NCBI GenBank assembly: GCA_951217055.1
Contig: OX578282.1
Location: 69,531,092 to 69,595,091 of the forward strand
Source of the DNA: Gerris lacustris
Lineage: Eukaryota > Arthropoda > Insecta > Hemiptera > Gerridae
Length of the DNA stretch: 64,000 bases
Direction: 5' to 3'
Part shown: piece after piece, positions 20,460 to 62,300 of the stretch
Position numbering within the stretch: position 1 is the stretch's first letter
How the letters are laid out: each line of letters begins with the position of its first letter
Made by a program: the position numbers and the translations under genes
The notes under the pieces: model-generated
Database searches by the model: none
What the model saw: the letters and a program-made list of their open reading frames with translations, nothing else
What the model was told of the DNA's origin: nothing

Positions 20460-20606
20460 CATTAATAATAAAATATAATTTAAATCAAATTATAATTATT
20501 ATTAACTACGGGAAACAGACAGAGAAAAATACACTCCAGCGCCGGGATTTGAACCACGGGCCTCTATATTTCCAGTATAGCGCTCTACCAACTAAGCTAC
20601 GCAGGA
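20460..20606 (-). mobile_element. tRNA-derived SINE
   Basis: The minus-strand head (20606-20535) folds as a tRNA: acceptor TCCTGCG pairs with CGCTGGA with one mismatch, A box TAGCTTAGTTGGTAGAGC, anticodon stem CTATA/TATAG with loop CTGGAAA, B box GTGGTTCAAATCCCG. It is followed by TATTTTTCTCTGTCTGTTTC and a TAATAATAATTATAA end, which recurs after the other copies, marking a SINE and not a tRNA gene. A short variable arm together with a Ser-type anticodon position also argues against function. Confidence 0.75.
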
Positions 20607-20674
20607 GAATGAGTTTCTCTGACGTTAATGATACCTTGTCCCGAATTTAAGCATTCAATTTTCCACATAAGTCT

Positions 20675-45472: not shown

Positions 45473-45796
45473 CCAAAAACCACTTGTGTGGTAAAAAAAA
45501 ACACCCCGCCAAGTCTGTGGTCCAAAAAAGTTGTGAAATAATAATAATATATAAAGATTTATATTTTAAATCAAATTATAAAACTTTCTGCCCCGCCAAG
45601 TGATGTTGGCACTTTCTTCTGACCCAACACTGTCAACTTAGATACTTATCAGCTTCTTCTCCTTGGCGGTGTGCCTGCAGTACTACTCGAAGTTAACTGG
45701 TTATATTCCACGCATCCTCTGCAAAGAAAGTAGTAGTTGCATGGGGTCATTCCTTGAAAGCTTAATTTGTATATTACTAGTAGTATGAATTTGCGG

Positions 45797-46712
45797 GTTC
45801 TGGACATAGGATATCGATTCGATAATATATTGATTTTGTATTGCATGTTTAGTCTAACCACCTATCGTCTACTTGTACGAGGCTGTGGAACCACCTCCCC
45901 CCACCCTTCCGATATGTTTTCGATACCCTCACCTGTACACCTGTACACGTGTATGTTGAAGAAGTCGAAGCTCGTTCTTGTGAAACGTTGTACGCGGGGC
46001 GTTTCGAGAGGAGCCTATAAAAAATCTCGTGTTCCGACTGGTATTCGAACCCCCAATGTCTCGAGCGTGAATACTTTGACTAAACGATCTCGGACACAGA
46101 GCCAATATGGAGGGGGAGGTCGAGAGTCGGTACATAAGCCTCGGTCATGACTAATATTTTTTAAATAATTCTAAAAATTTGTTTCGGCCCCCTTTGTCGG
46201 GGCTATTTTACCCCCCTCCCATCGGGGGGCTCTGTTTGTCGCCCCCCTCCCCTCGGGGGGCTCTGTTTGTTGTAAAAAAATATTTCGGGCCCCCTTTATA
46301 AAATAATATTCTCGAACTGTCAAAGACATTAATGTACGATTTTAATTACAACTAAATACTTACTTCTCCGGTATTCGCCTCCCGCCGCCCACATTATTAC
46401 GAAAAAATATTTCGCAGCCCCCCTTTGTCGAGAAAATTAAATCGGGGCTCGGGGGGGCCCTCTTGACTACGTCATCTGGATAATATTTTTGTGTGTCTCT
46501 ATGTTGGGAAATAATTACCTCTAAAAAATTTATTTCGGGGGCTGCCCCCTTTCTCGAAAAATTAAACTCCGATAACGCTGTCGGTTGCGTCATCGGGTAG
46601 GATAACATATGTCCGCCCCCTACCACCGGTACCTGGGGCCGCCTGACGCTGGGCGAAGTCATAGGCTGTCTGCGAAACGTTAGCGGTGACGCCCGGTGAT
46701 TCGGCCCCCGCC
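45797..46712. repeat. Left inner inverted arm of the 15.4-kb element
   Basis: Reverse complement of 59540-60443 from GTTCTGGACATAGGATATCG to GACGCCCGGTGATTCGGCCC. It contains GC-rich blocks of the CCCCCCTCCC/GGGGGGCTCTG type and a tRNA-like stretch (B box GGTTCGAATACCAG on the minus strand, about 46037-46052). Arms differ by small indels and substitutions, so they are not freshly copied. Confidence 0.85.
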
Positions 46713-47047
46713 GCCCAATTATTACGAAAAAATATTTCGCAGCCCGCCTTTGCGAAAAAATTTAATCCGGACTCGTTATCTGGGTCGATCCTCTCCCAGA
46801 CTTGTATTTAATATTATTATTTCTTTTAGCGTATTGTTTTGAAGGCTGATAACGAGAACAGGATGTTCTCTGCGGTCGCAGACTTCCCTCTAAAAAATGT
46901 AATCTATAATTATTTTTGTATACGGGTAGATTAAAAAAGAAATACAATTTATTTAAACATAATTTATTATAATAATATCAATACAATTATCACATCCGAT
47001 TGAAAAAAGGAATTTATGTTAACATATGTTTTAAATCAAAATAACAA
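46713..47047. other. Non-coding DNA between left arm and IAP gene
   Basis: AT-rich, with the segment around 46855-46890 (AACAGGATGTTCT, TGCGGTCGCAGACTTCC) that is repeated inverted near 58178-58205. It probably includes the 3' UTR of the IAP gene. Confidence 0.5.
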
Positions 47048-47524
47048 CTATGAAATAAATATTCTAACAACTTCTTCGATGTCTTGTCTACATATTCCAC
47101 ATTTGTTAAGTTTGACTAAACAGTCTATGCATGAAATAAGATGACCGCAAGGGAGGAAAGCTACTTCTAGAGGTTGTTCTAAACATATTTTACAGATCGA
47201 AGCTTCTGTTACAGCGGTAGATTGTAGTTCAGACGAGTTGTAATTTTTACACGTTCCATATCTGACTTTTTCGATGAAATAACATCCTTTCTTCATAAGA
47301 AGATAGTTACACCTTGAGAACCACTTTGCATGCTCCACCCAGGGATTGTCGTCTTTCTCCCAATCTTTGTGTCCACCGCCGCAGTAAAAACATATAGTTT
47401 TATCTTCTTTTCCGGTGTAATAAAATCCTGCTTCACTGAGAAGTTTCGGTTCGACTGAGCCAGTCCATGAGAAAAAAGAATTGATCCTATCGTCCACTGA
47501 AGCAAACTCGGGGAAACTAACCAT
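47048..47524 (-). CDS. Inhibitor-of-apoptosis protein, single BIR plus RING
   Basis: 158 residues. The BIR domain (about 8-80) is well formed: FASVDDRINSFFSW, LSEAGFYYTG, then the zinc ligands in CFYCGGG, W, EHAKW and C. The RING (about 108-152) reads CKICLEQPLEVAFLPCGHLI, SCIDCLVKLNKCGICRQD. This BIR-RING layout is that of IAPs, which bind caspases or IAP antagonists through BIR and ubiquitinate them through RING; single-BIR forms occur in insects and insect DNA viruses. It lies only 50 bp after the stop of the upstream gene on the same strand, tight spacing for a host genome. The start is the first methionine, just before the BIR. No intron. Confidence 0.9.
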   Translation of the reverse strand: MVSFPEFASVDDRINSFFSWTGSVEPKLLSEAGFYYTGKEDKTICFYCGGGHKDWEKDDNPWVEHAKWFSRCNYLLMKKGCYFIEKVRYGTCKNYNSSELQSTAVTEASICKICLEQPLEVAFLPCGHLISCIDCLVKLNKCGICRQDIEEVVRIFIS

Positions 47525-47574
47525 TCTAGATTTGCGTCTATATCATGACTTATTATATAAATTGAGCGGTATCA

Positions 47575-48273
47575 TTATTTTTTAATGTCTTGCATATAAT
47601 ATGAACACTTGTGATCGGGACAATGGTAAGGTTTTACTAATGTAAAACAGTATACACACATAAGGTTATGACGGCTATCGGTGGGTTTGAAGAAACCATT
47701 CAAGGCTAGTCCGGCGTTCTTTTGAGAGAATATATTCTTAAACGTGTGCAACCTAGGTATAGTGTCCATCAGGTTTATCCGACTTATGTTCAAAGTAGAC
47801 CACTGGAGGAGAGCGTAAAGTTTAACGTTTGAACATCTGTCTTTAAATCCATATTTATGATTGATACAACTGATATCCTTGTGTAACGGGTAGAATTCCT
47901 CCACCAATTTGTTTAATGTCGTATCGCATCCAAAATCTTCCAAGTTGAATATGGGTTTACCGATTAGGTCACTTATAAAAGAACATTTCGTCTTACCTTT
48001 GGCGAAGACCAATCTGCTGTCGCGAGTTTCTCTCTCGACGATGTCACCAAGTCGACTGTAGTCCACTTCGCCGCTTTTATACTTGAGACCATGTAATCGA
48101 TCGGTTAACCACCTGTTGGTGACAATGTCCAATTTGACATTTGACGACGGTGGTTTGAAGTAATAATAATGTATCGATGCCGTCGGCGAAGAATTACACA
48201 AGGATAACTCTTTCACAATAAAGTCGGTTGTACTCCTAAACGCCTCAAACTCAATCAGTGTAAATAGCACCAT
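47575..48273 (-). CDS. Exonuclease-fold-like protein with degenerate BIR-like C-terminus (copy 1)
   Basis: 232 residues. The N-terminus (FTLIEFEAF, FIVKELSLCN, YYYFKPPSS), a central VFAKGKTKCSFISDLIG, and NLEDFGCDTTLNKLVEEFYP with C-x2-H and C-S-N-V-K resemble the beta-alpha layout of DEDD exonucleases. The first acidic pair is altered, so catalysis is doubtful. The C-terminus (IFSQKNAGLALNGFF, CVYCFTLV, H, C) looks like a decayed BIR zinc site. The same architecture is found at 57374-58087. A TATAAAA at 48326-48320 and TCAGT at 48290-48286 lie upstream of the ATG. Role unknown; placement beside a BIR-RING gene suggests a joint function. Confidence 0.6.
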   Translation of the reverse strand: MVLFTLIEFEAFRSTTDFIVKELSLCNSSPTASIHYYYFKPPSSNVKLDIVTNRWLTDRLHGLKYKSGEVDYSRLGDIVERETRDSRLVFAKGKTKCSFISDLIGKPIFNLEDFGCDTTLNKLVEEFYPLHKDISCINHKYGFKDRCSNVKLYALLQWSTLNISRINLMDTIPRLHTFKNIFSQKNAGLALNGFFKPTDSRHNLMCVYCFTLVKPYHCPDHKCSYYMQDIKK

Positions 48274-48434
48274 GGTCCAAACATAACTGACCGTACACTC
48301 AAGGCGAACCGCATTGTACTTTTATATCTATTACCGACCAATAGAAACGTTTCTAACATCCGCATTGATTATATTGACACCGAGTTTAACGGAAATATCA
48401 GTCGCTTTCAGACCTTAGTGAGGTACGGATTGTT

Positions 48435-49034
48435 ATGGATTTGTTATATCAATCAGTCATTACACGTTTCAGTTCGAAGAAATGTATTATCGTCGGATTG
48501 AATGCTATCGACGGTGAACCTACATTGAGAATCCAACAAGGCAGAGTTAGTGTAGACGTCGGTGAATACATCTTGAAAGTAATAAAGATTAATCAACAGA
48601 CGATAAACAATTTTTTTATGGAAAAGAACAGTGAAGAGACGTTATACTTGGACAGGAAAACAACTAATGATGTGTACTTGGAGAAACAAAAAAAGAAGAA
48701 AACCGCTTTAATTTTCTCAGAATTGAATGCATGGCAGTTCGTAACAGATAACGTTTTACAAAGCATAAAACTACACAAGAAAGAGGTTATTCAACTTCTT
48801 TCAAACCTTCACAAGATCGAAGAATACATCGAAACTTTAAAGAAAATATGGAGTAAGTTTTTTCTTTTTTTTTTTAAATAATTTTATTTTATTATTCATC
48901 GTTCTTCTTATTAGTTAATTTCAATTATTTATTTTATAGACACCAACGAAGGAGCTGAACTTCCTGAAGTTTACTTTGACGTAGATGAGCGCCTCAAGGA
49001 AATACGAATGAACCAAACATTTTCCGAGGAATAA
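48435..49034 (+). CDS. Two-exon gene, possible PC4-like DNA-binding protein
   Basis: Exon 1 is 48435-48852 and exon 2 is 48940-49034. The 87-bp intron has GTAAGT and TTTTATAG borders, and splicing joins the frames to a stop at 49032. The product is about 170 residues. LRIQQGRVSVDVGEYIL followed later by TALIFSELNAWQFVTDNVLQ resembles the beta-sheet plus helix pattern of PC4/SUB1 (VDIREYY ... ISLS..W..L), a single-strand DNA-binding coactivator. The tail is acidic (LPEVYFDVDERLKEI). It is divergent from the exonuclease-like gene, with starts 161 bp apart. AATAAA follows the stop. The PC4 assignment is tentative. Confidence 0.5.
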
Positions 49035-49485
49035 AAATAAAAACACAGATTTGTAATTTTTTGTACAATTTTTATTTTACAAAATAAACAAATTTAAAAA
49101 AAAATTAAATGTCTTTTTGTTATTTATCCACTTGCTCTTTTCATTCAGCCCGAAATAATTTACATAGAATTTATTATTTTTTTCTCTGTAGAATGTTTAT
49201 TAACAAATAATACAAAGTTTTTTAGTTACGTTTATTTTGTACAAAAATGTCCACATTTTGACGCTTTAAGAACTAATAAAGTTAAAAGTACAAACATCTG
49301 CTTTACAAAAGAAATCTCTAAGATAATAAAAATAGAATACAAAAATCTTAGTTGTTTTGACTACTCACAATTCTATGACCACAACTATAACCTAGTATAT
49401 GGTTTATTAATTTACAATTGCCATTGCAGCAAACATATATAAAGGATTTTAATAATATATGACAGTTTCAAAGAAGTAATCATAT
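49035..49485. other. Convergent intergenic, 3' ends of two genes
   Basis: Contains AATAAA signals for the plus-strand gene and the 3' flank of the minus-strand MADF gene. AT-rich, nothing else seen. Confidence 0.5.
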
Positions 49486-50790
49486 TTATATCTTATGAAG
49501 TAATTTATTGTATCTGCTTTGTCTTTTAGTTTCCCAACTCCGTCTAAGCTTATTTAGCATGGCTATATAATTGATTGAGCATGGTTCGTTTTCTCTTAAC
49601 CCTGGAAGTCTATATTTGGTAACCTCAGAGGAGTCGTAACTCCCAATTGAATTAGGTGATTCATCAACGCTACATGTTTTATAGTTGTTTAAGTCATATT
49701 TCTTTTTGTGTAAATCTCGTGACTGTACTTTATCCATATCGGAATCATCAGAAATATATCTATTTAAAAATGTTAACTGGGCGTGACTATATTTCGGAGC
49801 CTTAGAGGATTCATAGCTCATAGGAGATTTATCAACGCTACATGTTTTATAGTTGTTAAAATCATATTTAGAATTAACAATTTTTTGACATTTATTTTGG
49901 TATATATCTCCTGACTCTACCTCATCCATGTCGGGGAGTGATGAATTATCAGAAATAACACTATTTAGAAATGTTAACTGTGGGTGATTATATTTCGGAG
50001 CCTTAGAGGAATCATAGCTCCTATTTGAATTAATTTTTGTATCAAAACTGCATGTTTTATTCAAGTCATAATTAGAATTATCAATTTTTAGATAATTCTT
50101 TGAGTGTGAATCTCCTAAATTTATCCCCTCAATTTCGGAGATTGATGAATCTTCAGAATCAACATCAATAGTTAGGTTTGTCTTTCCTGGACTGGTTTCT
50201 GTGTCTTTACAAGAACCCAGATCTGGCTCCTTATCCAACTCTTCTTGCTTGCTTTCTTCAACATGTTTATTAAATTTACCACCTGGTTGCTTAATTACTT
50301 CCAGTGGTTGCTGGAGATTAAAACATTTCGATACAGTTTCAGTTATAAAAGAATCCATTGGTTCTTTTATCGGTGGATTCTGGTTATCTATAGCTTCTTT
50401 TTGCTTAGTTAAAGTTTTAAATTCAACACCGTCTATTGCGGAAGCTTGCTGTGTTAGAACCTCTGGACCTCGCAGAAAATCTATATTGGTGAAATACCAC
50501 AAACTAGGAGTATGAAGATCTACAGTGTCTTTATACGTTTTTTCTTTGGTATTAATTTTCTTCAGTTGCCTACGGTACGCTGTACGCAGAATATTAATTT
50601 TTCTACGTACCAGACCCCTATCAGCTTTGGGTTCAATTTCTTTCATCTTTTCCACCAGTTTTTCGTACGCCATGTCCTTCTTATTCTTATTTTTATATGC
50701 TTTACTTTTTATGTCCCACAGTGCTGGTAAGTTGTGGTATAAAACTATAAACTCACGCCAGAATTTCTTATTACTCTTTGGTAATGTCAT
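49486..50790 (-). CDS. MADF (Myb/SANT-like) domain protein, full-length copy
   Basis: The best start is the ATG at 50790 (MTLPKSNKKFWREF); the frame stays open upstream but only into the leader. Residues 8-95 form a MADF domain: FWREFIVLYHNLPALWDI, DMAYEKLVEKMKEIEP, RRKINILRTAYRRQLKK, ending near SLWYFTNIDFL. MADF proteins are DNA-binding, often transposon-derived, transcription factors. The rest is low-complexity and holds about three imperfect repeats around SSKAPKYxHPQLTFLN and NYKTCSVD, and a basic tail (LRRSWETKRQSRYNKLLHKI). A TATAAAAG lies at 50897-50890. The first 115 codons and promoter are duplicated almost without change at 56139-56600. It could regulate through the adjacent palindrome arrays, which is inference. 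Confidence 0.75.
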   Translation of the reverse strand: MTLPKSNKKFWREFIVLYHNLPALWDIKSKAYKNKNKKDMAYEKLVEKMKEIEPKADRGLVRRKINILRTAYRRQLKKINTKEKTYKDTVDLHTPSLWYFTNIDFLRGPEVLTQQASAIDGVEFKTLTKQKEAIDNQNPPIKEPMDSFITETVSKCFNLQQPLEVIKQPGGKFNKHVEESKQEELDKEPDLGSCKDTETSPGKTNLTIDVDSEDSSISEIEGINLGDSHSKNYLKIDNSNYDLNKTCSFDTKINSNRSYDSSKAPKYNHPQLTFLNSVISDNSSLPDMDEVESGDIYQNKCQKIVNSKYDFNNYKTCSVDKSPMSYESSKAPKYSHAQLTFLNRYISDDSDMDKVQSRDLHKKKYDLNNYKTCSVDESPNSIGSYDSSEVTKYRLPGLRENEPCSINYIAMLNKLRRSWETKRQSRYNKLLHKI

Positions 50791-50986
50791 AATAATAAAA
50801 ATTAAAACACAGTGAGAGAATGAACAGGATAAGGTCTTTCCTCGATCAACTATCGTCAAACACTGTCATAAACAGATTGGGAAAAATCCCTTTTATACAA
50901 TTAGTTTGCACAAAACATGACACATATAATACTATTTGCTCGGAAATGTTAACTTAATTGACTATATGTGTAATATAAGGCTTTGA

Positions 50987-51208
50987 TGTTTGCGCAAACA
51001 TCAAACAGCCATATTCATAGTTAGGATAATTACCCATTTGTTTGCGCAAACATCAAACAGCCCTATTCATAGTTAGGATGATTGCCCATTTGTTTGCGCA
51101 AACATCAAACAGCCATATTCATAGTTAGGATGATTGCCCATTTGTTTGCGCAAACATCAAACAGCCATATTCATAGTTAGGATGATTGCCCATTTGTTTG
51201 CGCAAACA
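50987..51208. repeat. Palindrome array 1, TGTTTGCGCAAACA x5
   Basis: The 14-bp perfect palindrome starts at 50987, 51039, 51091, 51143 and 51195, a strict 52-bp period, within units carrying CATCAAACAGCC(A/C)TATTCATAG and TTAGGATGATTGCCC. The first copy extends to a 24-bp perfect palindrome TTTGATGTTTGCGCAAACATCAAA. The array lies upstream of the MADF gene and is cut at 51229 by the poly(A) end of a LINE. The layout resembles hr-type enhancer/origin repeats of insect DNA viruses, though the sequence is not one I recognise. Confidence 0.9.
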
Positions 51209-51589
51209 TCAAACACCCCCCATTTATAGTTTTTTTTTTTTTTTTTTTTATTAAATCGACAATCAAAAAAAATTAGTCCAAAAACAAAATAAAAATTACA
51301 CTTGTCTACTTCCCCAAAAAAGCAGAGCTGGAGCTTGGGGAAGGAGTTCAAATAGAAAAAAAGAAAGTTACAATCAAAATGAAAATTAGTTTTACAAAAT
51401 AATTCAACATCCGTGTAGACAATAATTAACGAAAAATAATCCATTCCTTTATAGGATAAGATTTTAATAATAATTTAAGATAAGATTCATTCTGAACTCA
51501 TTGATAAGGATGTTTATATATTTATGTAATTACTAAATGTTTAAAAGAAAGCCTAAATCAGTTTAAGTTCAAAGTTTAAGAGCATTATT

Positions 51590-51838
51590 ATCAAAGACAT
51601 ATATACATATACATCCACATACATATATACCCATTTACAAATATACATACACACACATACATACACATACATACATATATACATATACATACATATACAT
51701 ACATACATATACATATATACACATATACATATACATATATACATACACATACATACATATACACATACATACATACACATACACACACACACATACACAC
51801 ATATATACACACATATATACACCCATATATATACACAT
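51590..51838. repeat. TACATA/TACACA microsatellite
   Basis: About 250 bp of TACATA/TATACACA simple repeats in the LINE 3' UTR. The several overlapping open frames here are artefacts. Confidence 0.95.
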
Positions 51839-51840
51839 CA

Positions 51841-54285
51841 TTATTCTGATAGCTTATTGTAGAAATATCTTTTCAAGTTATATTTAAAATTAGATATTTC
51901 TTTGATAATTCTAATATCAGAAGGGAGAGAATTTATAGCATCTGTACCTCTATACAATACTGATTTCTGCGCAAAAGAAGTGGAAAAATTTGGTATAGCA
52001 TATTTAAGAACATTAACAGCTCTAGTACTGTAAACAACGTTTTCTGAGCTGGTAACTGGATTGAAATTCTTATAGACAAATATGATAGCTCTTTGGGTGG
52101 CTATTGTAGTAAGGGGTAAAACATTTAGTTCAATAAATGATAATTTGGAAGAATACATTATTTTCTTACTTAGAATTATTTTAATAATTTTCTTTTGGGT
52201 GTTTATTAGAGGAATAAGAGTAGAAGTACTAGAGCCTCCCCAACCAACTATACCATACTGTAATTTGGAGTCAACCAGGGCAAAATATAATGACCTTAAT
52301 ATTTGTTTTTTTAAAAATTTCCTGACATTGTGAAAAACATAATAAAATTTCCTTAGGTTGGCAACACAGTTATTTATGTGGTGATTCCATCTTAGGCACT
52401 GGTCTATGGTGATTCCAAGGTACGATGCTACATCTCTCCTTTCTAGTATCTCACAGTTCTGACATTGATGATTTTCTTTAGTGTTGTGAAATTTAATATT
52501 AATTTGTTGGAGGGAAGGAAGCGAGGATTCTTTAATAGAAAAAGCGATATAATAAGACTTTTTTTTGTTAATTGTTAATTTAAAATGATTTAGCCAGTTG
52601 TGGATTTGGAATAGATTTTCATTAGCCTTCTCAGAGACCTCAGTCCAACTGCTTCCCGTTAGAACCAGAGCCATATCATCAGCATAAGATATGATTTTAC
52701 ATCCTTTATATTTTAATAAATTATTCACATAGACTAAAAACAAAAGCGGACCAATTACTGTTCCTTGAGGTACTCCGTACTTAAAGGTACGGGACTCACT
52801 GAGATTATTTTTTATTTTAACAAATTGCTGTCTACTGTCGAGATAAGACAAAAACCACGATAACGTTTCACGGCAAAAACCTAGATTGACTAATGTGTTC
52901 AAAAGCATTTCGTGAGATATGCTGTCGAAAGCCTTAGTCAAATCGAGAAATATAACTAAACATTTTTTTGATTGATCAAGTTCACGATAAATCGTTTGGG
53001 TGAGCTGTGCTATGGCGTCCTCCGTTCCCAGACCCTCTCGAAATCCAAATTGATTACTTGAAATTAATTTGTTATCTTCTAAGTATGTGACCAGCTGTCT
53101 TTTCACAATCTTTTCAAATATTTTAGCTATATTAGATGTCAGAGAAATTGGTCTGTAATTAGTTACCGATTTTTTATTTCCGGATTTATATATAGGTGTT
53201 ATAATTGTAGTTTTATATATGTCTGGGAATACGCCAGTTCGTAAACTAAGGTTGATTAAGTGTGTTAATGGTTTTAAAATGTCCGTCTTTATTTCTTTAA
53301 TAGTCTCGGAACGGAGGTGGTCAAATCCGGGACCTGATCCACCTTTTAGTTGATTTATAGCATCGGAGATTTGAGATTCAGTAACCTCCTGAAAATTAAA
53401 CTCAATGCCATTAATTGAAAAATCCAAATTATCAGGAATCAGCTGTACATCTGGTATCTGAGAAGCCAAACATTCCCCAATTTTGGAAAAATAAGAGTTA
53501 AATATATTTGCCATTTCAGCAGGATTGTCCGCAGAAGCTACGGTTCTATCCTCGTGAGTTATAGTTTTGATATCATTTTTCGTATTATTATTTCCCATGG
53601 CTTCGTTTAGTACCTTCCACATTTGTTTTTGGTTTGAACCGGCTTGTTCGATTTTTCGGGAATAATATTTATTTTTCACTTCACGTATCAAAACATTCAG
53701 CTTATTTCTATATTTTTTAAAATAATTTAATAATTTTTTATTCATAGGATTTTTACCGACCTTTCTTGCTAGTTTTTCTTTTTTACGAATAGAGTTTATC
53801 AAGCCATGAGTAATCCAAGGTTTTATTTTTTTATACTTGGAATTTTCTTTTATGATTATAACTTTGGAGGATAGATCCGTCGTTTCATCCATTATCTTTT
53901 TAAAAATCAATGCGGCTCTATTAATATCAAAACAGTTTACTACTTGATCCCAACAAACATTATTTATGTTCTCTTTAAATTTTTCTATATCTAATAGTTT
54001 CATTTGCTCCATAGAAGCGGTTTGATTTTTACTAGATTTAACTATACCTTTATGACAGCAAATAATGGTATTATGATCTGTAATGTTTGATTTCCAGTTA
54101 ATGAAAGTATATTTATCTTTATTTTTATGAAAGTTGGAAAGAAAAAGATGATCTATACAGGAAATGTTATCGTTAAAAATTCTAGTAGGTGTATTTATAC
54201 AACTATAAAGGTTAAAACTAGCCATACAGTCTAAGTAAGTATTCTTATAAGGATCCTTGCTTCCTTCCAAAATGTTTATATTCAC
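51841..54285 (-). CDS. LINE ORF2, end of endonuclease and reverse transcriptase
   Basis: 814 codons. It begins at the endonuclease G-D-x-N block (DVNINILEGSKDPYKN), continues through the second catalytic block (CIDHLFLSNF, TDHNTIICCH) and a basic linker (PWITHGLINSIRKKEKLARK), then RT: GSGPGFDHLRSE, NYRPISLTSNIAKIFEKIV, LDLTKAFDSISHE, YGVPQGTVIGPLLFLVYVNN, catalytic SYADDM and SYLGITIDQCLRW. The frame is fully open, so it is young. It is cut off from the endonuclease N-terminus by the MITE at 54295-54850. Confidence 0.85.
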   Translation of the reverse strand: MNINILEGSKDPYKNTYLDCMASFNLYSCINTPTRIFNDNISCIDHLFLSNFHKNKDKYTFINWKSNITDHNTIICCHKGIVKSSKNQTASMEQMKLLDIEKFKENINNVCWDQVVNCFDINRAALIFKKIMDETTDLSSKVIIIKENSKYKKIKPWITHGLINSIRKKEKLARKVGKNPMNKKLLNYFKKYRNKLNVLIREVKNKYYSRKIEQAGSNQKQMWKVLNEAMGNNNTKNDIKTITHEDRTVASADNPAEMANIFNSYFSKIGECLASQIPDVQLIPDNLDFSINGIEFNFQEVTESQISDAINQLKGGSGPGFDHLRSETIKEIKTDILKPLTHLINLSLRTGVFPDIYKTTIITPIYKSGNKKSVTNYRPISLTSNIAKIFEKIVKRQLVTYLEDNKLISSNQFGFREGLGTEDAIAQLTQTIYRELDQSKKCLVIFLDLTKAFDSISHEMLLNTLVNLGFCRETLSWFLSYLDSRQQFVKIKNNLSESRTFKYGVPQGTVIGPLLFLVYVNNLLKYKGCKIISYADDMALVLTGSSWTEVSEKANENLFQIHNWLNHFKLTINKKKSYYIAFSIKESSLPSLQQINIKFHNTKENHQCQNCEILERRDVASYLGITIDQCLRWNHHINNCVANLRKFYYVFHNVRKFLKKQILRSLYFALVDSKLQYGIVGWGGSSTSTLIPLINTQKKIIKIILSKKIMYSSKLSFIELNVLPLTTIATQRAIIFVYKNFNPVTSSENVVYSTRAVNVLKYAIPNFSTSFAQKSVLYRGTDAINSLPSDIRIIKEISNFKYNLKRYFYNKLSE

Positions 54286-54290
54286 GTCTC

Positions 54291-54854
54291 CTAGAGGTCG
54301 ACCAAGAAGTCATGAACACGGGAGAAACGGAAAGCTTAACTTCGTTTAAAATCGGAACTTCCGAGTAGTGCCGAAGTCAGTACAGTCGGGTGCTAAGACA
54401 ATAACCATTCCTAGTTTGTTTGACATGCCCAGTTATGTCAAATATCACGAATAACAACAGGAAGGTTTCCAATCTGTTAGGTTTCCTGTTTTGTTTGTTT
54501 TTATACAGCACGAACTATAGACACAACTGTTCTAAATCCAAATCAAACTCAGAAATAAAGAGGAAGAAAAAAAATAGATTAAGGAAAAAGAATATCGATT
54601 TAGATTTAAAGAATATTATTATGAATAATCAATAAATAATAATATTAAGATATTATCGTATATTATTAGTGATTTTCTTAGGAGGTACAGTGTTGCCTGT
54701 TGCAAAAAATATAGAAGTTATCAAAAATAAAATTATTAATAACAGAAGAACAACACTGTGTTTTTTGACCGTGGTCTATTATATCAAAAACTGACTGTAC
54801 ATGACAACACTAGCGCACTCCTCTCATTTCCATGACTTCTTGGTCGACCTCTAG
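54291..54854. mobile_element. MITE in LINE endonuclease, TIR AGGTCGACCAAGAAGTCATG, 4-bp TSD
   Basis: The 20-bp terminus AGGTCGACCAAGAAGTCATG at 54295 is mirrored at 54831-54850. CTAG lies on both sides (54291-54294 and 54851-54854). Taking out the element and one CTAG brings the endonuclease frames together in phase at the G-D-x-N motif, which proves insertion. 556 bp with no transposase. The superfamily with a CTAG duplication is uncertain. Confidence 0.85.
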
Positions 54855-55385
54855 TATTTTTAAATTTATTAAGTGATTAGTACTTATAATATTGTTTAAT
54901 TCGAAAATGAAAAGTTGTTTATCAGCTGCAGGTGACCTATATAAAAAAATAATATCATGTTTTTCACCATTATTGAGTTGTAATCTCAATAGCAGGCAAT
55001 TACATTGAGTCATAAAAATCTCCCTGAATTCCAACACACTAATTTCCTTTTTTACATAAAGAACAATACCCGCACATTGATTGAAGTTATTTTTAGTAGA
55101 ACTATAAAAATCATAGCCATCTAATTCAAGAGATTTAGTGTGGTGATACTTAGGAAGGAGCCATGACTCGACAAACGCTAAAATATCAAATTTCTTTTTC
55201 ATCATATTTAAATGAAGTAAAAATTCATCAGAGTTTTTGTAAATACTCCTGATATTAGTAACAATAATAGACAGATCAGTTATATTATCATTTAACACCT
55301 TATTGAGTTCGTTAATAGATGAAACACTTATTTCATTATTATTCAAATCTTGGTAATCATCTTGTAGATGGTCAATTAAAACCAT
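54855..55385 (-). CDS. LINE ORF2, N-terminal endonuclease part
   Basis: Starts MVLIDHLQDDYQDLNNNE and carries LSIIVTNIRSIYKNSDEF, DILAFVESWLLPKY, AGIVLYVKKE and IIFLYRSP, the first half of an APE-type endonuclease. Reading continues beyond 54855 into the MITE only as far as a chance stop. The remainder is at 54285 and below. Confidence 0.75.
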
Positions 55386-55640
55386 TTAAAGAGAGAGAGA
55401 GAGAAATAAGATAAATAAATAAATAAATGAATAGAATAAAATTAAAAAAAAAGTAATTGATAAACCAAATTAAATTAAAAAGAAAAAAGAAAAAGAAAAA
55501 AAAAAAAAAAAAAATGGATAATAAAAGAATAATGGATATAAAATAAAAAAAAAAAATTAACTCATCTGGAGGGGTGTGTAGAGTTGATGTTTAAGATCAT
55601 TTTTTATTAAGTCCTTTTTTAAAAAAGTTTTAAAGTTGAA
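55386..55640. other. A-rich spacer between LINE ORF1 and ORF2
   Basis: Simple AAATAAAT and poly(A)-rich sequence (minus strand T-rich). No gene. Confidence 0.6.
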
Positions 55641-56477
55641 CTAGTTATGCAGTGACTTCGTCTGGTTGATTGGTGGTTCATCGTGAAGTTCCGGTAATTT
55701 CTTTAATTGATCCAGGGCTCGGAGTTGTTCTATGGTTTTGATGTTAATGGTTTCGCTATTAAAGTCTGATTTCCTTAAAAATATTTTTCCATCTTTAATC
55801 CAAATAAATCTATAAGAATATACCTGTGAAAATTTTCTTGCGAGCCAGTGTAATCTCTTATTTTCCACAGTAAGATGTTCGTTAATGTAAATTCTAGATC
55901 CTACCCAGATTTCGTTGATTTGACTGGCGTCTAATTTTAAATCTTTCGACTTTTTTATCCACAAGTTTTTGTAGTTTCTGTTTTTTAAGAGTACAATTAT
56001 AGGTTTGGGTTTGTTTTTGGCCATTGTACGAACCCTATGAGCCACATCTATGTGGTTCTCCGGCGTATCTATTCCAAGTAGAGTACCGATTTTCATCACT
56101 ACCGAGATGCAGTTCTCATTGTTCGAACACATGAACTGTGTTAGAACCTCTGGACCTCGCAGAAAATCTATATTGGTGAAATACCACAAACTAGGAGTAT
56201 GAAGATCTACAGTGTCTTTATACGTTTTTTCTTTGGTATTAATTTTCTTCAGTTGCCTACGGTACGCTGTACGCAGAATATTAATTTTTCTACGTACCAG
56301 ACCCCTATCAGCTTTGGGTTCAATTTCTTTCATCTTTTCCACCAGTTTTTCGTACGCCATGTCCTTCTTATTCTTATTTTTATATGCTTTACTTTTTATG
56401 TCCCACAGTGCTGGTAAGTTGTGGTATAAAACTATAAACTCACGCCAGAATTTCTTATTACTCTTTGGTAATGTCAT
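55641..56477 (-). CDS. Chimera: MADF domain fused in frame to LINE ORF1 C-terminus
   Basis: From the same ATG context as the full-length MADF gene (here 56477), about 115 codons encode the identical MADF domain up to GPEVLTQ. The frame then passes without interruption into FMCSNNENCISVVMKIGTLL, DVAHRVRTMAKNKPKPIIVL and KDLKLDASQINEIWVGSRIY, ending NQTKSLHN. The second half is the Baculo_FP-type C-terminal domain found in ORF1 of insect LINEs. The junction (56138/56139) is the 5' end of the LINE. The open frame of about 278 codons, with its own TATA box (TATAAAAG about 56584) and palindrome array, could be expressed. It may equally be an accident of a duplication breakpoint. Confidence 0.7.
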   Translation of the reverse strand: MTLPKSNKKFWREFIVLYHNLPALWDIKSKAYKNKNKKDMAYEKLVEKMKEIEPKADRGLVRRKINILRTAYRRQLKKINTKEKTYKDTVDLHTPSLWYFTNIDFLRGPEVLTQFMCSNNENCISVVMKIGTLLGIDTPENHIDVAHRVRTMAKNKPKPIIVLLKNRNYKNLWIKKSKDLKLDASQINEIWVGSRIYINEHLTVENKRLHWLARKFSQVYSYRFIWIKDGKIFLRKSDFNSETINIKTIEQLRALDQLKKLPELHDEPPINQTKSLHN

Positions 56478-56673
56478 AATAATAAAAATTAAAACACAGT
56501 GAGAGAATGAACAGGATAAGGTCTTTCCTCGATCAACTATCGTCAAACACTGTCATAAACAGATTGGGAAAAATCCCTTTTATACAATTAGTTTGCACAA
56601 AACATGACACATATAATACTATTTGCTCGGAAATGTTAACTTAATTGACTATATGTGTAATATAAGGCTTTGA

Positions 56674-57265
56674 TGTTTGCGCAAACATCAAACAGCCCCA
56701 TTCATAGTTAGGATAATTACCCATTTGTTTGCGCAAACATCAAACAGCCCTATTCATAGTTAGGATGATTGCCCATTTGTTTGCGCAAACATCAAACAGC
56801 TCCATTTAAAGTTAATATGTTTGCGCAAACAATCTTTGTTTAGGTGTTTGCGCAAACATCAAACAGCCCTATTCATAGTTAGGATGATTGCCCATTTGTT
56901 TGCGCAAACATCAAACAGCTCCATTTAAAGTTAATATGTTTGCGCAAACAATCTTTGTTTAGGTGTTTGCGCAAACATCAAACAGCCCTATTCATAGTTA
57001 GGATGATTGTCCATTTGTTTGCGCAAACATCAAACAGCCCTATTCATAGTTAGGATGATTGTCCATTTGTTTGCGCAAACATCAAACAGCCCTATTCATA
57101 GTTAGGATGATTGCCCATTTGTTTGCGCAAACATCAAACACCCCCATTTGTAGTTATTATGTTTGCGCAAACATCAAACAGCCCCAATCATAGTTAGGAT
57201 GATTGCCCATTTGTTTGCGCAAACATCAAACAGCCCCATTTAAAGTTAATATGTTTGCGCAAACA
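56674..57265. repeat. Palindrome array 2, TGTTTGCGCAAACA x14
   Basis: The palindrome starts at 56674, 56726, 56778, 56818, 56845, 56897, 56937, 56964, 57016, 57068, 57120, 57160, 57212 and 57252. Spacings are only 52, 40 or 27 bp, from two interleaved unit types (CATTCATAGTTAGGATGATTGCCC-like and CATTTAAAGTTAATA / AATCTTTGTTTAGG). It sits between the divergent MADF chimera and the exonuclease-like gene at 57374, the expected place for a shared enhancer or operator. Confidence 0.95.
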
Positions 57266-57334
57266 ATCTTTGTTTAGTTCTACACGACCGAATCATACTG
57301 TACACGTCCTCTGACGGAATGATCTATCAAGTGG

Positions 57335-57340
57335 TATAAA
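57335..57340 (+). promoter_or_regulatory. TATA box immediately before the first in-frame ATG
   Basis: TATAAA ends one base before ATG 57341. Transcription should start about 57362-57370, so that ATG is outside the transcript and the start at 57374 (MSRVYSSN) is preferred. Confidence 0.65.
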
Positions 57341-57373
57341 ATGGTCAGAGACGGAGGGGCGGGCAACCAGTTT

Positions 57374-58087
57374 ATGTCAAGAGTTTATTCAAGCAACATG
57401 TCGTCTTCATACACCGAAAATAATAACTGCACGAGAGAAAGTTGTGCCGCCGTATTAGATATTCAGTTTTATCATGACACCAAAAATGTACGTGAGATTG
57501 CCATAGTAGACGTAAATGAATTGAAAATCGTGTACCAAAATTCCTTTTCGAGTGCACAACAGATCCGGTTACCCGAAGTTCGTTCACGGTGGTCTCCTTG
57601 CACATATAATCAAGAATATATGAAGAATCTCCTCTATCAACTAGTGAATATTTTCCTTTCGCGATACGATTTCATTTTCATGAAAGGTTTCGGCAAAGGA
57701 TCATATATGAAACAACTGTATACATCGCATCAAATTTACCTGTTGGATGAGTTAAGATGTCCTCCTATCACCAGTTTGATCAAGAAATATAATATCGGTC
57801 AAAATAAATCTGCCGCGTCCAGAGCTATGGTACTCAGTTACTGGTGTAAAGACATTAGTTTAAGTCTATACGATTATAGCACTAGACTCTTGACTTTTAG
57901 GAATTGGACCATACAAAACATATCCCCAGAGAAAATGGCGGAATTCGGACTAACTCATTGGCATAGAGGATATACGAGGTGTATTTATTGTAAAACCCTC
58001 ATCAATGACTGGGAAAATTGTGATAACATTTCATCTCATCACTCGTGGTCTTCTTCGAGCTGCCCCTTAAATAAGTTTGAAAATTAG
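57374..58087 (+). CDS. Exonuclease-fold-like protein with BIR-like C-terminus (copy 2)
   Basis: About 237 residues. The N-terminal half has AAVLDIQFYHD, VREIAIVDVNELKIVYQNSF, a central DFIFMKGFGKGSYMKQL and LLDELRCPPITSLIKKY, giving the strand-helix order of DnaQ-like folds; one aspartate of the first acidic motif is present but the partner is Gln. The C-terminus has GLTHWHRGYTRCIYCKTLI, NDWENCDN, HH-W and C-P-L, closely following the BIR pattern G-Y-...-C-x2-C-...-W-...-H-x6-C. It shares layout with 47575-48273 but is diverged. Its promoter is adjacent to the 14-copy palindrome array. Enzyme activity is unproven. Confidence 0.6.
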   Translation: MSRVYSSNMSSSYTENNNCTRESCAAVLDIQFYHDTKNVREIAIVDVNELKIVYQNSFSSAQQIRLPEVRSRWSPCTYNQEYMKNLLYQLVNIFLSRYDFIFMKGFGKGSYMKQLYTSHQIYLLDELRCPPITSLIKKYNIGQNKSAASRAMVLSYWCKDISLSLYDYSTRLLTFRNWTIQNISPEKMAEFGLTHWHRGYTRCIYCKTLINDWENCDNISSHHSWSSSSCPLNKFEN

Positions 58088-58369
58088 TATATAAATAGAT
58101 AAATATCTTGTATTTCGAATATTTCATAGTTTTAAAAAATAAATGTTTGCATAAATTCCTTTTTCATTTATCAAAGGAAGTCTGCGACCGCAGAACATCC
58201 TGTTGTTGAAGCCATTCGTCCTCTTTCACCTCAGTCTACAGTCCTTGATCAACCTTCGACTAAGTTAGAGGTTCTGTTAGGTGACTTTACCCTCAGCATA
58301 TTTGAGTCTATCGCTACTGTTGTATAAGTTCAAAGTAGAAGATCATTTATTAAATTAAAAAATTGTAAC

Positions 58370-58906
58370 ATGATATCAAAGACTGTTACTTCAGAGGATC
58401 AATGCAAAAGAAATATTGAAAACGATTGTCCTGTTTGTCTTCATCCATGTGATCATCCAGCTAAGTTACCATGCTGTCATGTATTTTGCTACTTGTGCAT
58501 CAAGGGAATAACACGCATTGGTCAACCTTGTCCTATGTGTAGGTCTCCAATACCTCATAACTATGCTGAGCGTCCGCAACTTGTGACTTCTAATACACCT
58601 TGTACCGATGTTAGTGAAGAAAATGAAGATAAAAATACGCACTGTTGGTTCTACCAGGGAAAGAATGGCGGTTGGTGGCAGTTTCAGCAGAGGATGTCTG
58701 ATGAAATCGAAGCGAATCGCATCTTAGGTATTTCTTGCTTTGACATGATGATTTGTGGATCGCTTTATGTCATAGATATAATAGGAAGCGTACAATATCC
58801 TAAAAACTGTCCTACGAGACGTAGGCGCTTATTGCGTGATTTACCTTCTCATATTACCAGGATAGGTATTGCAGGTATACCTAGTGTACCAGTTAATTTA
58901 AACTAA
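58370..58906 (+). CDS. RING-WWE protein, RNF146 (Iduna)-like E3 ligase
   Basis: 178 residues. The RING (about 21-62) reads CPVCLHPCDHPAKLPCCHVF, CYLCIKGITRIGQPCPMCRS. A WWE domain (about 88-150) follows: THCWFYQGKNGGWWQFQQRM, SDEIEAN. This order is diagnostic of RNF146, where WWE binds iso-ADP-ribose in poly(ADP-ribose) chains and RING ubiquitinates PARylated targets. Here the C-terminus ends shortly after WWE (RRRRLLRDLPSHITRIGIAG), as in short RNF146 forms. It is a compact intronless frame inside the inverted-repeat element, unlike a host multi-exon gene, which suggests capture as cargo. Confidence 0.85.
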   Translation: MISKTVTSEDQCKRNIENDCPVCLHPCDHPAKLPCCHVFCYLCIKGITRIGQPCPMCRSPIPHNYAERPQLVTSNTPCTDVSEENEDKNTHCWFYQGKNGGWWQFQQRMSDEIEANRILGISCFDMMICGSLYVIDIIGSVQYPKNCPTRRRRLLRDLPSHITRIGIAGIPSVPVNLN

Positions 58907-59539
58907 CTTGTTAATTGAAAGAAATTTCTATAATAATATAATTATATGTATTTAGTATTTCTTATTCGATTAAAATAAGTATATATGATTGTATACTTTT
59001 AATCGTGATGATAATCATTTCAAATTGCCAACTATACATGTTTATAAAATTAAATATTAAATTTTGTTTATATTTGATTCATTTTTAATAATGATTAAAA
59101 TCATAGTACTATATTATTGTAATAATATGTTAAAAATGCATTTAAAAATAATTATATATATATTATATATAAACTATTCGTATTATATTTTGTTCTTTTT
59201 ATCGCTTATCAATTTCCTTTTTCCTGTAACACTAACAGAATATTACAGAGTTGTAAGCTTTTACAAATGAAAAGAATGTTTTACTATAATGAACTACAAC
59301 TCGTAGGAATTTTATGTGGGCACCGCCAGAGGAGATTACGAGTTCGAATACCAGAAGGGTAAGGGATTATTTTTATAAACATAAGCTCATATACGACATT
59401 AGTTATAATATAATTTACATGTGGAATTCAAAATAGCGTGGATGGGTCTATAATATAAGCGGGGAACTTTGAAAATAACAGATACTGCTCCCGACAAAGG
59501 GGGGCTATTTTAATTCGGGGTTACGCTTTTCGAAGAAGG
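58907..59539. other. AT-rich 3' flank before the right arm
   Basis: ATTAT-rich sequence including a probable 3' UTR of the RING-WWE gene. A tRNA B-box-like AGTTCGAATACCAG lies at about 59340. No coding gene is supported. Confidence 0.5.
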
Positions 59540-60443
59540 GGGGCCGAATCACCGGGCGTCACCGCTAACGTTTCGCAGACAGCCTATGACTTCGCCCAGC
59601 GTCAGGCGGCCCCAGGTACCGGTGGTAGGGGGCGGACATATGTTATCCTACCCGATGACGCAACCGATAGCGTTATCGGAGTTTAATTTTTCGAGATAGG
59701 GGGCAGCCCCCGAAATAAATTTTTTAGAGGTAATTATTTCCCAACATAGAGACACACAAAAATATTATCCAGATGACGTAGTCAAGAGGGCCCCCCGAGC
59801 CCCATTTTAATTTTCTCGACAAAGGGGGGCTGCGAAATATTTTTTCGTAATAATGTGGGCGGCGGGAGGCGAATTCCGGAGAAGTAAGTATTTAGAGAAT
59901 ATTATTTTATAAAGGGGGCCCGAAATATTTTTTTACAACAAACAGAGCCCACCGAGGGGAGGGGGGCGACAAACAGAGCCCCCCGATGGGAGGGGGGTGA
60001 AATAGCCCCGACAAAGGGGGCCGAAACAAATTTTTAGAATTATTTAAAAAATTATTATTCATGACCGAGGCTTATGTACCGACTCTCGACCTCCCCCTCC
60101 ATATTGGCTCTGTGTCCGAGATCGTTTAGTCAAAGTATTCACGCTCGAGACAATGGGGGTTCGATTACCAGTCGGAACACGAGATTTTTTATAGGCTCCT
60201 CTCCCAGACATCGACGTTTCGCAGCATGCTATCGGCTTCTTCCACATGTCGACGTTTCACAAGAACGAGCTTCGACTTCTTCAACATACACGTGTACAGG
60301 TGTACAGGTGAGGGTATCGAAAACATATCGGAAGGGTGGGGGGAGGTGGTTCCACAGCCTCGTACAAGTAGACGACAGGTGGTTAGACTAAACATGCAAT
60401 ACAAAATCAATATATTATCGAATCGATATCCTATGTCCAGAAC
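59540..60443. repeat. Right inner inverted arm of the 15.4-kb element
   Basis: Mirror of 45797-46712, from GGGCCGAATCACCGGGCGTC to CGATATCCTATGTCCAGAAC. It includes a tRNA-like segment (TGTCCGAGATCGTTTAGTCA ... GGGGGTTCGATTACCAG) at about 60112-60170. Large overlapping open frames here come from GC-rich composition. Confidence 0.85.
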
Positions 60444-60719
60444 GCACTAATTATACTTACTTTTTTCTATTTTATTTGCTTTATGATAATGGGAAAAGAT
60501 TTACAGCAATGATCATTGTGGCATCGAGAAGAAGGCTCTTCTCAATCCCACTTTTAACAACACTGTTTAAAGGCTTTCCTCTCCAATATGCACCTGCATA
60601 TATTAGATCTAGTTGTCTATAACTAAGACTATGAGGTGAACAACTATCTTTCCACACAAACCTCATGTGGCAAACGTGAAGGTGAAACAAGAAATTATAT
60701 TGGTGTTTGAAGAATATTA
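60444..60719. other. Asymmetric insert between inner and outer right arms
   Basis: 276 bp without counterpart on the left side, where a different segment of about 115 bp lies at 45681-45796. The minus frame (CHMRFVWKDSCSP, LDLIYAGAYWRGKPL) looks protein-like but is not recognised. Confidence 0.4.
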
Positions 60720-60905
60720 AAATTCCAGTTTCTGGAAATGGCAAGGCACACCACCAAGGAGAAGAAGCTGATAAGTATCTAAGTTGACAGTATTGGGTCA
60801 GGAGAAAGTGCCAACGTCACTTGGCGGGACAGAAAGTTGATTTCACAACTTTTTTGGACCACAGACTTGGCTGGGTGTTTTTTTTACCACACAATTGGTT
60901 TTTGG

Positions 60906-62044: not shown

Positions 62045-62300
62045 ATGTTGACTTCTAAGACTTGTGGAAAATTGAAAGCTTAAATTCGGGACAAGGTATC
62101 ATTAACGTCAGAGAAAATCATTCTCCTGCGTAGCTTAGTTGGTAGAGCACTATACTGGAAATATAGAGGCCCGTGGTTATAATCCCAGCGCTGGAGTGTA
62201 TTTTTCTCTGTCTGTTTCCCGTAGTTAATAATAATTATAATTTGATTTAAATTAAAATTTAATCGTTTGGTAGTATGAATACTACCAAAATCGTAAAATA
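62045..62300 (+). mobile_element. tRNA-derived SINE with flanking repeat
   Basis: The tRNA-like head is at 62121-62192 (TCCTGCGTAGCTTAGTTGGT ... CCAGCGCTGGA), then TATTTTTCTCTGTCTGTTTC and TAATAATAATTATAATTTG. The upstream 75 bp (GGACAAGGTATCATTAACGT) is also shared with the 20606-20680 locus, so the mobile unit is larger than the tRNA-plus-tail. The B box carries GTTATAATCC in place of GTTCAAATCC, so this copy is weakened. Confidence 0.7.

What the first reader, a model, noticed from the sequence alone, without database searches (positions are those of the whole stretch)
45473..60905. 15.4-kb inverted-repeat element carrying an apoptosis/ubiquitin gene set
Inverted arms (outer about 200 bp, inner about 900 bp) enclose a BIR-RING IAP, two exonuclease-like/BIR-like proteins, RING-WWE, MADF and a PC4-like gene. 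Size and termini recall Maverick/Polinton elements or integrated insect DNA viruses, but no polymerase B, integrase, protease or capsid is visible, and no known element I can name has this gene set. Three zinc-BIR-like and two RING proteins in one mobile-looking unit would be a new kind of cargo element.
Basis: partly seen in the sequence, partly recalled or inferred. Interest (0 to 1): 0.9.

Follow-up and report, generated by a model that had tools for sequence, protein, structure and literature searches.

The report
Maverick satellite carrying anti-cell-death genes
A repeated piece of animal DNA looks like a parasite of a resident virus-like jumping element: it keeps that element's ends and a few of its side genes, has lost the machinery for copying and packaging, and carries its own genes that resemble blockers of cell death.

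Summary
The inverted-repeat unit is real and mobile, but its limits and reading need correcting. The outer 200-bp arms belong to an abundant dispersed repeat. The element runs about 45779-60461, with TIRs of about 930 bp; this copy is swollen by a LINE (51232-56135) and a 783-bp duplication. The host assembly holds 39 IAP-gene matches, 18 full-length at 98-100%. All 7 other copies I opened share the left gene order, AGTAGT/ACTACT ends and perfect 6-bp target duplications, the published Maverick signature; no core Maverick gene was seen, though only one was opened throughout. Three of 8 IAP copies at 95-97% were opened: all are Mavericks sharing the outer TIR (about 0.5 kb) and the left module (IAP, exo-BIR, ORF148), with integrase, ATPase, PLA2-like and capsid genes; the one opened throughout has PolB. 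Best reading: a non-autonomous, probably helper-dependent Maverick satellite whose core was replaced by MADF, a second exo-BIR, an RNF146-like gene and a palindrome array. Exo-BIR and ORF148 differ from the Maverick versions by dS about 0.9 at dN/dS 0.18-0.23, so the lineage is old. Helper dependence is inferred.

The parts
45473..45676 (.). outer left arm: copy of an abundant dispersed short repeat, NOT part of the element
   Evidence: 1614 candidates, 40 scored, 48 rows; not found beside the 7 other copies
60744..60905 (.). outer right arm: second copy of the same dispersed repeat, NOT part of the element
45779..46709 (+). left terminal inverted repeat, starts AGTAGTATGAATT; its outer 0.5 kb is shared with the Mavericks, its inner part mostly not
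59539..60461 (-). right terminal inverted repeat; terminus reads AGTAAGTATAATT, no matching target duplication in this copy
47048..47524 (-). IAP gene: one BIR and one RING, 158 aa; shared with the Mavericks (96-97% nt)
47575..48273 (-). exo-BIR protein exoL, 232 aa; shared with the Mavericks (77-78% nt)
48435..48852 (+). ORF148 exon 1, unknown function; shared with the Mavericks (74-75% nt)
48940..49034 (+). ORF148 probable exon 2 (splice sites read from the sequence, not tested)
   Evidence: inference
49036..49210 (.). last stretch on the left homologous to the Mavericks (beside the 3' end of their integrase); left breakpoint of the replaced core
   Evidence: 80-82%
49486..50790 (-). MADF-domain gene, satellite-specific; intact here
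50449..51231 (.). first copy of the duplication flanking the LINE
50987..51208 (.). tandem array of the palindrome TGTTTGCGCAAACA (5 copies)
51232..56135 (-). non-LTR retrotransposon, not seen in the 7 other copies as far as fetched; poly(A) end at 51232; its ORF1 is fused in frame to a partial MADF copy
56136..56932 (.). second copy of the duplication flanking the LINE
56674..57265 (.). palindrome array continued (14 copies)
57341..58087 (+). second exo-BIR protein exoR, 248 aa, satellite-specific; RNase H-like fold (weak) plus BIR 2e-9
58370..58906 (+). RNF146/Iduna-like RING-WWE gene, 178 aa, satellite-specific
59161..59391 (.). two short blocks homologous to the right end of the Maverick (83% and 87%); right breakpoint of the replaced core

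Best explanation
The unit is a non-autonomous Maverick/Polinton element, best described as a satellite of Mavericks in the same genome. Shown: it has Maverick ends, 6-bp target duplications, many near-identical copies, and an outer TIR and left gene module homologous to Mavericks that encode integrase, ATPase, capsid and, in the copy opened throughout, PolB. Shown: the two copies read throughout (window and C3) lack these core genes and carry MADF, a second exo-BIR, an RNF146-like RING-WWE gene and a palindrome array instead. Inferred: a Maverick's integrase and protein-primed polymerase act in trans on the shared ends, so that the satellite is copied and inserted, and perhaps packaged. Inferred: its proteins keep the cell alive during Maverick activity (IAP against caspases, RNF146-like against PAR-driven death). 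Inferred: MADF binds the palindrome array or another element sequence to control expression or replication.
For: IAP gene 39 matches, 18 full-length at 98-100%. Of those 18, 8 (window and 7 others) were opened: 8 of 8 have IAP-exoL-ORF148-MADF-array in the same order. The one other copy opened throughout (L021+L022) also has exoR, RNF146-like and the right TIR. The right ends of the other six lie where the 10-kb form predicts, with TIR in six, postR in five and RNF146-like sequence in two. 7 of 7 other copies have perfect 6-bp duplications, and 14 of 14 of their ends start AGTAGT (read by eye). Vertebrate Mavericks: (AGT)2//(ACT)2 ends, 6-bp duplications, TIRs 46-1447 bp (PMC8097293, passages). 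Of the 8 IAP copies at 95-97%, 3 were opened and 3 of 3 are Maverick-type. One of them (L042, L043) gave rve 4e-13, Pox_A32 ATPase 1e-5, PLA2-like 2e-13, double jelly roll 4e-101, PolB 2e-22, M10 peptidase 9e-25, with duplication ACTGTC (read). Main homology of satellite and Maverick stops at 49210 and resumes at 59161; MADF and RNF146-like have no tblastn match in the 8 loci searched, exoR only a 31-33% BIR-region match to the IAP. A decayed relative (C61) also joins IAP-exoL-ORF148 to an integrase (rve 1.6e-9). dN/dS: exoL 0.18-0.19, ORF148 0.23 at dS about 0.9. TIRs within copies 98.0-99.9% identical where ungapped.
Against: No transposition, excision, packaging or expression was observed. 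The TIR is shared with the Mavericks only in part: outer 0.5 kb at 84-87%, with the inner 0.4 kb (46377-46776) aligning at about 62% with many gaps. A Maverick that also carries MADF/exoR/RNF146-like could exist unseen. L044 and L045 were seen only in their left 8.6 kb and judged by ORF translations, not by a profile scan. exoL is broken in 3 of 7 other copies and ORF148 exon 1 in 1 of 7. The window copy has no target duplication. TIR arms within a copy also differ by 14-246 gap columns. The anti-death role is by homology only.
Confidence: 0.75

Rival explanations
1. A simple internal-deletion derivative (a MITE-like non-autonomous Polinton) whose leftover genes are passengers without function.
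For: Shares both ends and the left module with the Maverick and lacks the core; some gene copies are broken.
Against: Carries three genes and an array not found in the Maverick loci searched. exoL and ORF148 differ from the Maverick versions by dS about 0.9 with dN/dS 0.18-0.23, so they stayed under selection on at least one side for long. IAP is open in 7 of 7 other copies, and MADF is open in the 5 ungapped full-length copies of 7.
Confidence: 0.12
2. The unit is the stable accessory half of a larger autonomous Maverick type not yet seen, which itself carries MADF, exoR and the RNF146-like gene.
For: 10 of 18 near-identical copies were not opened; accessory genes do occur at Maverick ends (IAP-exoL-ORF148 in L042, L044, L045).
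Against: All 7 other opened copies have their right end where the 10-kb form predicts, and L021+L022 is complete, with a 6-bp duplication and no core gene among its ORFs of 120 aa or more.
Confidence: 0.1
3. A locally rearranged host region with two unrelated inverted repeats.
For: The outer arms are indeed an unrelated dispersed repeat; the window copy lacks a target duplication.
Against: Same unit with different 6-bp duplications at 7 other places on six contigs.
Confidence: 0.01
4. A fragment of an integrated large insect DNA virus (nudivirus or baculovirus-like; IAP plus hr-like palindrome arrays).
For: IAP genes and palindromic tandem arrays also occur in baculoviruses (recalled).
Against: No large-virus core gene seen in the copies opened; Maverick ends, and homologous Mavericks in the same genome. 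The IMG/VR scans with exoR, RNF146-like and ORF148 found no relative.
Confidence: 0.02

Closest known systems
Maverick/Polinton elements (adintovirus-like)
   Same: AGTAGT ends, 6-bp target duplication, long TIRs (against PMC8097293 passages); outer TIR and left module homologous to core-gene-bearing Mavericks in the same genome.
   Different: No PolB, integrase, ATPase, protease or capsid seen; carries MADF, exoR, RNF146-like and a palindrome array; inner TIR mostly its own.
Phage satellites (PICIs) and virus satellites such as transpovirons and virophages
   Same: Smaller than the presumed helper, shares cis ends, lacks the helper's core, carries its own genes (analogy; PICI description seen in PMC6431247 passages; transpovirons recalled).
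   Different: Lives as chromosomal insertions in an animal genome; helper dependence and packaging not shown; virophages encode their own capsid (recalled).
Non-autonomous DNA transposons / MITEs
   Same: Ends kept, mobility genes lost.
   Different: Long and gene-rich; the genes shared with the Maverick show purifying selection at high dS.
Viral and cellular IAPs; RNF146/Iduna
   Same: BIR and RING; RING-WWE aligns over 152 residues with human RNF146 (4qpl, 8.5e-37).
   Different: Carried together on a mobile element; the exo-BIR architecture had only 2 relatives in the 5.8-billion-protein search.

Membership tests
Maverick/Polinton | 6-bp target site duplication | tested here: met
   7 of 7 other copies; 0 of 1 for the window copy
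Maverick/Polinton | AG/AGTAGT 5' end with matching 3' end | tested here: met
   14 of 14 ends of the 7 other copies; in the window left end yes, right end altered
Maverick/Polinton | long terminal inverted repeats | tested here: met
   about 930 bp; 98.0-99.9% identity where ungapped, 14-246 gap columns, within 8 copies over 900 bp
Maverick/Polinton | protein-primed PolB and retroviral-type integrase | tested here: not met
   none among the element's ORFs in the window (ORFs of 80 aa or more) or in the C3 copy (120 aa or more); present in L042/L043
Maverick/Polinton | packaging ATPase, protease, capsid proteins | tested here: not met
   none in the window element or the C3 copy; ATPase and double-jelly-roll MCP in L042; no protease family was hit in L042's ORFs by Pfam
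Satellite (helper-dependent element) | shares cis ends with a core-gene-bearing element in the same genome | tested here: met
   main outer TIR pieces 85-96% in L042-L045; inner TIR mostly not shared; right-end blocks in L043
Satellite (helper-dependent element) | own gene set not found in the helper | tested here: met
   MADF, exoR, RNF146-like: no full match in L042-L045; palindrome array 0 in L042-L045, at least 13 in each satellite copy (several arrays cut by locus ends)
Satellite (helper-dependent element) | mobilised by the helper's proteins | not testable with these tools
   inference only
Satellite (helper-dependent element) | packaged in the helper's particles | not testable with these tools
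   no data
IAP family | BIR and C-terminal RING | tested here: met
   Pfam BIR 2.1e-20 and RING 2.2e-13; BIRC2 match 2.3e-36
RNF146/Iduna | RING followed by a WWE domain | tested here: met
   alignment to 4qpl_A over 152 residues; PAR binding itself not tested
DEDDh exonuclease | RNase H-like fold with D-E-D-D residues | tested here: inconclusive
   0 fold matches at E<=0.001, best 3.6e-3 (SPT6), then 3'hExo and ExoX; first motif reads DIQ in exoR and EFE in exoL, so activity is doubtful

The most novel reading that the evidence does not exclude
An animal genome hosts a long-lived, gene-bearing satellite that parasitises (or restrains) a resident virus-like Maverick, as PICIs and transpovirons do with their helpers. 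It exchanges its end region and IAP gene with the helper by recombination and carries its own proteins against caspase-driven and PAR-driven cell death.
Probability: 0.5. Interest if true: 0.88.

Novelty: new variant of a known kind. Interest (0 to 1): 0.73.

Why it matters
Mavericks are thought to be virus-like, yet I know of no dedicated satellite with its own conserved genes for animal Mavericks. A search for six exact phrases combining nonautonomous, satellite, Maverick and Polinton found 0 papers; the library holds only open-licence papers and the wording may differ elsewhere. If real, it gives animals a helper/satellite pair inside one assembled genome. Recent insertions and near-identical TIRs make it testable whether Mavericks still move and whether a satellite modulates them, and it links a mobile element to two cell-death pathways.

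Tried and rejected
Outer arms as element ends: rejected. PC4-like gene: rejected as unsupported. Viral relatives in IMG/VR of exoR, RNF146-like and ORF148: none confirmed. PHROGs at E<=0.1: nothing for 5 of 6 proteins, one chance-level row for ORF148 (E 0.081). Homologue search for exo-BIR: 2 proteins, from short Logan contigs, 46-48% identity; for ORF148: 0. Exo-BIR model: pLDDT 62, weak RNase H-like matches. Literature: nine searches; the listings, most of them capped at 12-20 papers, showed no paper on such an element. Papers seen: passages of PMC6431247 (and one section), PMC8504770, PMC8097293, PMC2836005, PMC8363768; PMC11071296 gave one irrelevant passage from its reference list and PMC11071308 no passage for the terms; the others only as listings. 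L038 and L039: IAP relatives without a recognised core gene (one unidentified ORF of L038 gave no Pfam match). L014, L016, L018, L020, L024, L026: mostly the wrong side of the copies; no element pieces other than short LINE-like matches in L014, L024 and L026. The host species was not identified.


Full report
Observation. The window lies in an unnamed animal assembly (arthropod-like by its genes, not identified) of 937 Mb in 69 contigs, at C7:69531092-69595091. The inverted arms are present. Pfam confirms the BIR-RING IAP, the MADF and RING-WWE genes and a clear BIR in one exo-BIR protein; the other has only a marginal BIR (E 0.057). RING-WWE is an RNF146/Iduna relative (PDB 4qpl, E 8.5e-37 over 152 residues). 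The 'PC4-like' reading of ORF148 is unsupported.

Limits. The outer arms are copies of an abundant dispersed repeat (1614 first-look candidates, of which only 40 were scored, giving 48 rows) and were not found beside the other copies. The element starts at 45779 with AGTAGTATGAATT and ends near 60461. Inside it a non-LTR retrotransposon (51232-56135) is flanked by a direct repeat of about 783 bp, so this copy is larger than the complete copy on C3 (about 10.07 kb, L021+L022).

Copies. The IAP gene has 39 matches: 18 full-length at 98-100%, 8 at 95-97%, 1 partial at 99% and 12 others, more diverged or short. I opened 8 of the 18 (window and 7 others). All 8 have the order TIR, IAP, exoL, ORF148, MADF, palindrome array. 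L021+L022, the one other copy opened throughout, continues with exoR, RNF146-like and the right TIR. The other six have an unread gap of 2.2-2.4 kb before their right end; that end lies where the 10-kb form predicts, with the TIR in all six, postR in five and the RNF146-like 3' end in two; L015 also shows the start of the exoR segment. Reading by eye the flanks printed, the 7 other copies have perfect 6-bp duplications: ATTGAT, TATAGA, GTTATT, CATATA, TATATA, TCCGTC, CATGTG. Their 14 ends all start AGTAGT. The window copy has none (ATTACT against TTTTTC or TACTTT). Arms within a copy are 98.0-99.9% identical where ungapped, with 14-246 gap columns, so at least some insertions are young. Vertebrate Mavericks are described with (AGT)2//(ACT)2 ends, 6-bp duplications and TIRs of 46-1447 bp (PMC8097293, passages seen).

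The Maverick relatives. Of the 8 copies at 95-97% I opened 3 (L042/L043, L044, L045). All 3 carry the main outer TIR pieces (85-96%; shorter pieces 77-100%), IAP (96-97%), exoL (77-78%, truncated in L042), ORF148 (74-75%) and, next to it, an integrase ORF, a conserved DPNELVDRLRLL ORF (no Pfam match; Polinton-typical by recall), an ATPase, a PLA2-like ORF and capsid ORFs. L044 and L045 were seen only in their left 8.6 kb and judged by the likeness of their translations to L042. For L042 and L043, Pfam gives rve 4e-13, Pox_A32 1e-5, PLA2-like 2e-13, double jelly roll 4.3e-101, Peptidase_M10 9e-25 and DNA_pol_B_2 1.9e-22; its duplication is ACTGTC (read). A decayed relative on contig C61 also joins IAP-exoL-ORF148 to an integrase (rve 1.6e-9). 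A second family (C1:93205608-93219746) has 5.9-kb TIRs at 99.8% identity, AGTAGA ends, duplication CTCAGC, an open IAP and a broken exoL, and lies in what reads as a Copia element; among its ORFs of 110 aa or more I saw no core gene, but ran no profile search on them.

What was replaced. The main homology between satellite and Maverick ends at 49210, beside the integrase 3' end, and resumes at 59161 near the right TIR; a few hits under 60 bp lie elsewhere. Against this reading, the TIR is shared only in part: its outer 0.5 kb matches at 84-87%, but bins 46377-46776 align at only about 62% with many gaps. MADF and RNF146-like give no tblastn hit in L042-L045 and exoR only a 31% BIR-region hit to the IAP. 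The palindrome array is in every satellite copy (at least 13 palindromes each; several arrays are cut by locus ends) and absent from L042-L045.

Age and exchange. Against L044 and L045, exoL and ORF148 have dS 0.87-0.90 with dN/dS 0.18-0.23, while IAP has dS 0.08-0.09 with dN/dS 0.43-0.49 (simple pairwise NG86-type counts). Along the left module, identity to L045 is 95-98% in the three bins from 46777 to 47376 and 70-84% in the bins from 47577 to 49176. So the satellite is not a fresh deletion derivative of the Mavericks seen: the two lineages have been apart for long, with a recent recombination or conversion tract over the IAP region. IAP between satellite and the second family: dN/dS 0.30. 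Gene integrity in the 7 other satellite copies: IAP open in 7; exoL open in 4, broken in 3; ORF148 exon 1 open in 6; MADF open in the 5 ungapped full-length copies, with internal repeat changes in the other 2. exoR and RNF146-like could be checked whole in one other copy only (L022, open).

Mechanism. Shown: Maverick-type insertion signature, shared outer ends, lost core, own genes. Inferred: a Maverick's integrase and PolB act in trans on the shared ends. Inferred: IAP and the RNF146-like protein keep the infected or activated cell alive by blocking caspase-driven and PAR-driven death (functions recalled from the named families). Inferred: MADF acts on the array. The exo-BIR proteins have an RNase H-like fold (weak) with altered first-motif residues, so they are more likely binding proteins than nucleases.

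No movement or expression data were available.

Noticed in passing
50449-51231 and 56136-56932: The LINE is flanked by a direct repeat of about 783 bp (2 mismatches in the first 665 bases, then array differences): an extraordinarily long target duplication, or a duplication linked to the insertion.
   Followed up: partly
L042 1-1150 and L043 after 7830: The Maverick copy seems to sit inside the capsid gene of another Maverick: the flanks printed read, by eye, like the capsid ORF.
   Followed up: partly
L036, L033, L034, L037 (C1:93205608-93219746): A 14.1-kb relative with 5.9-kb inverted repeats, each arm carrying IAP, a broken exoL and part of ORF148, inserted in what reads as a Copia element, with a 6-bp duplication CTCAGC.
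   Followed up: yes
L043:79-1803: The Maverick carries a matrixin (M10) metallopeptidase gene, E 9e-25.
   Followed up: no
L021:7480-9297: The MADF gene of one copy contains a 105-bp in-frame repeat expanded to about seven units.
   Followed up: no
50987-51208, 56674-57265: Palindrome TGTTTGCGCAAACA in 19 copies in tandem arrays, reminiscent of baculovirus hr repeats (recalled); not found in the Maverick loci L042-L045.
   Followed up: partly
window 20533-20607 (-) and 62123-62197 (+): Two tRNA-Ser(GGA) genes or tRNA-derived repeats.
   Followed up: no
window 3271-4413 (-) and 19076-20140 (+): Two similar ankyrin-repeat-like ORFs in opposite orientation (no profile search run).
   Followed up: no
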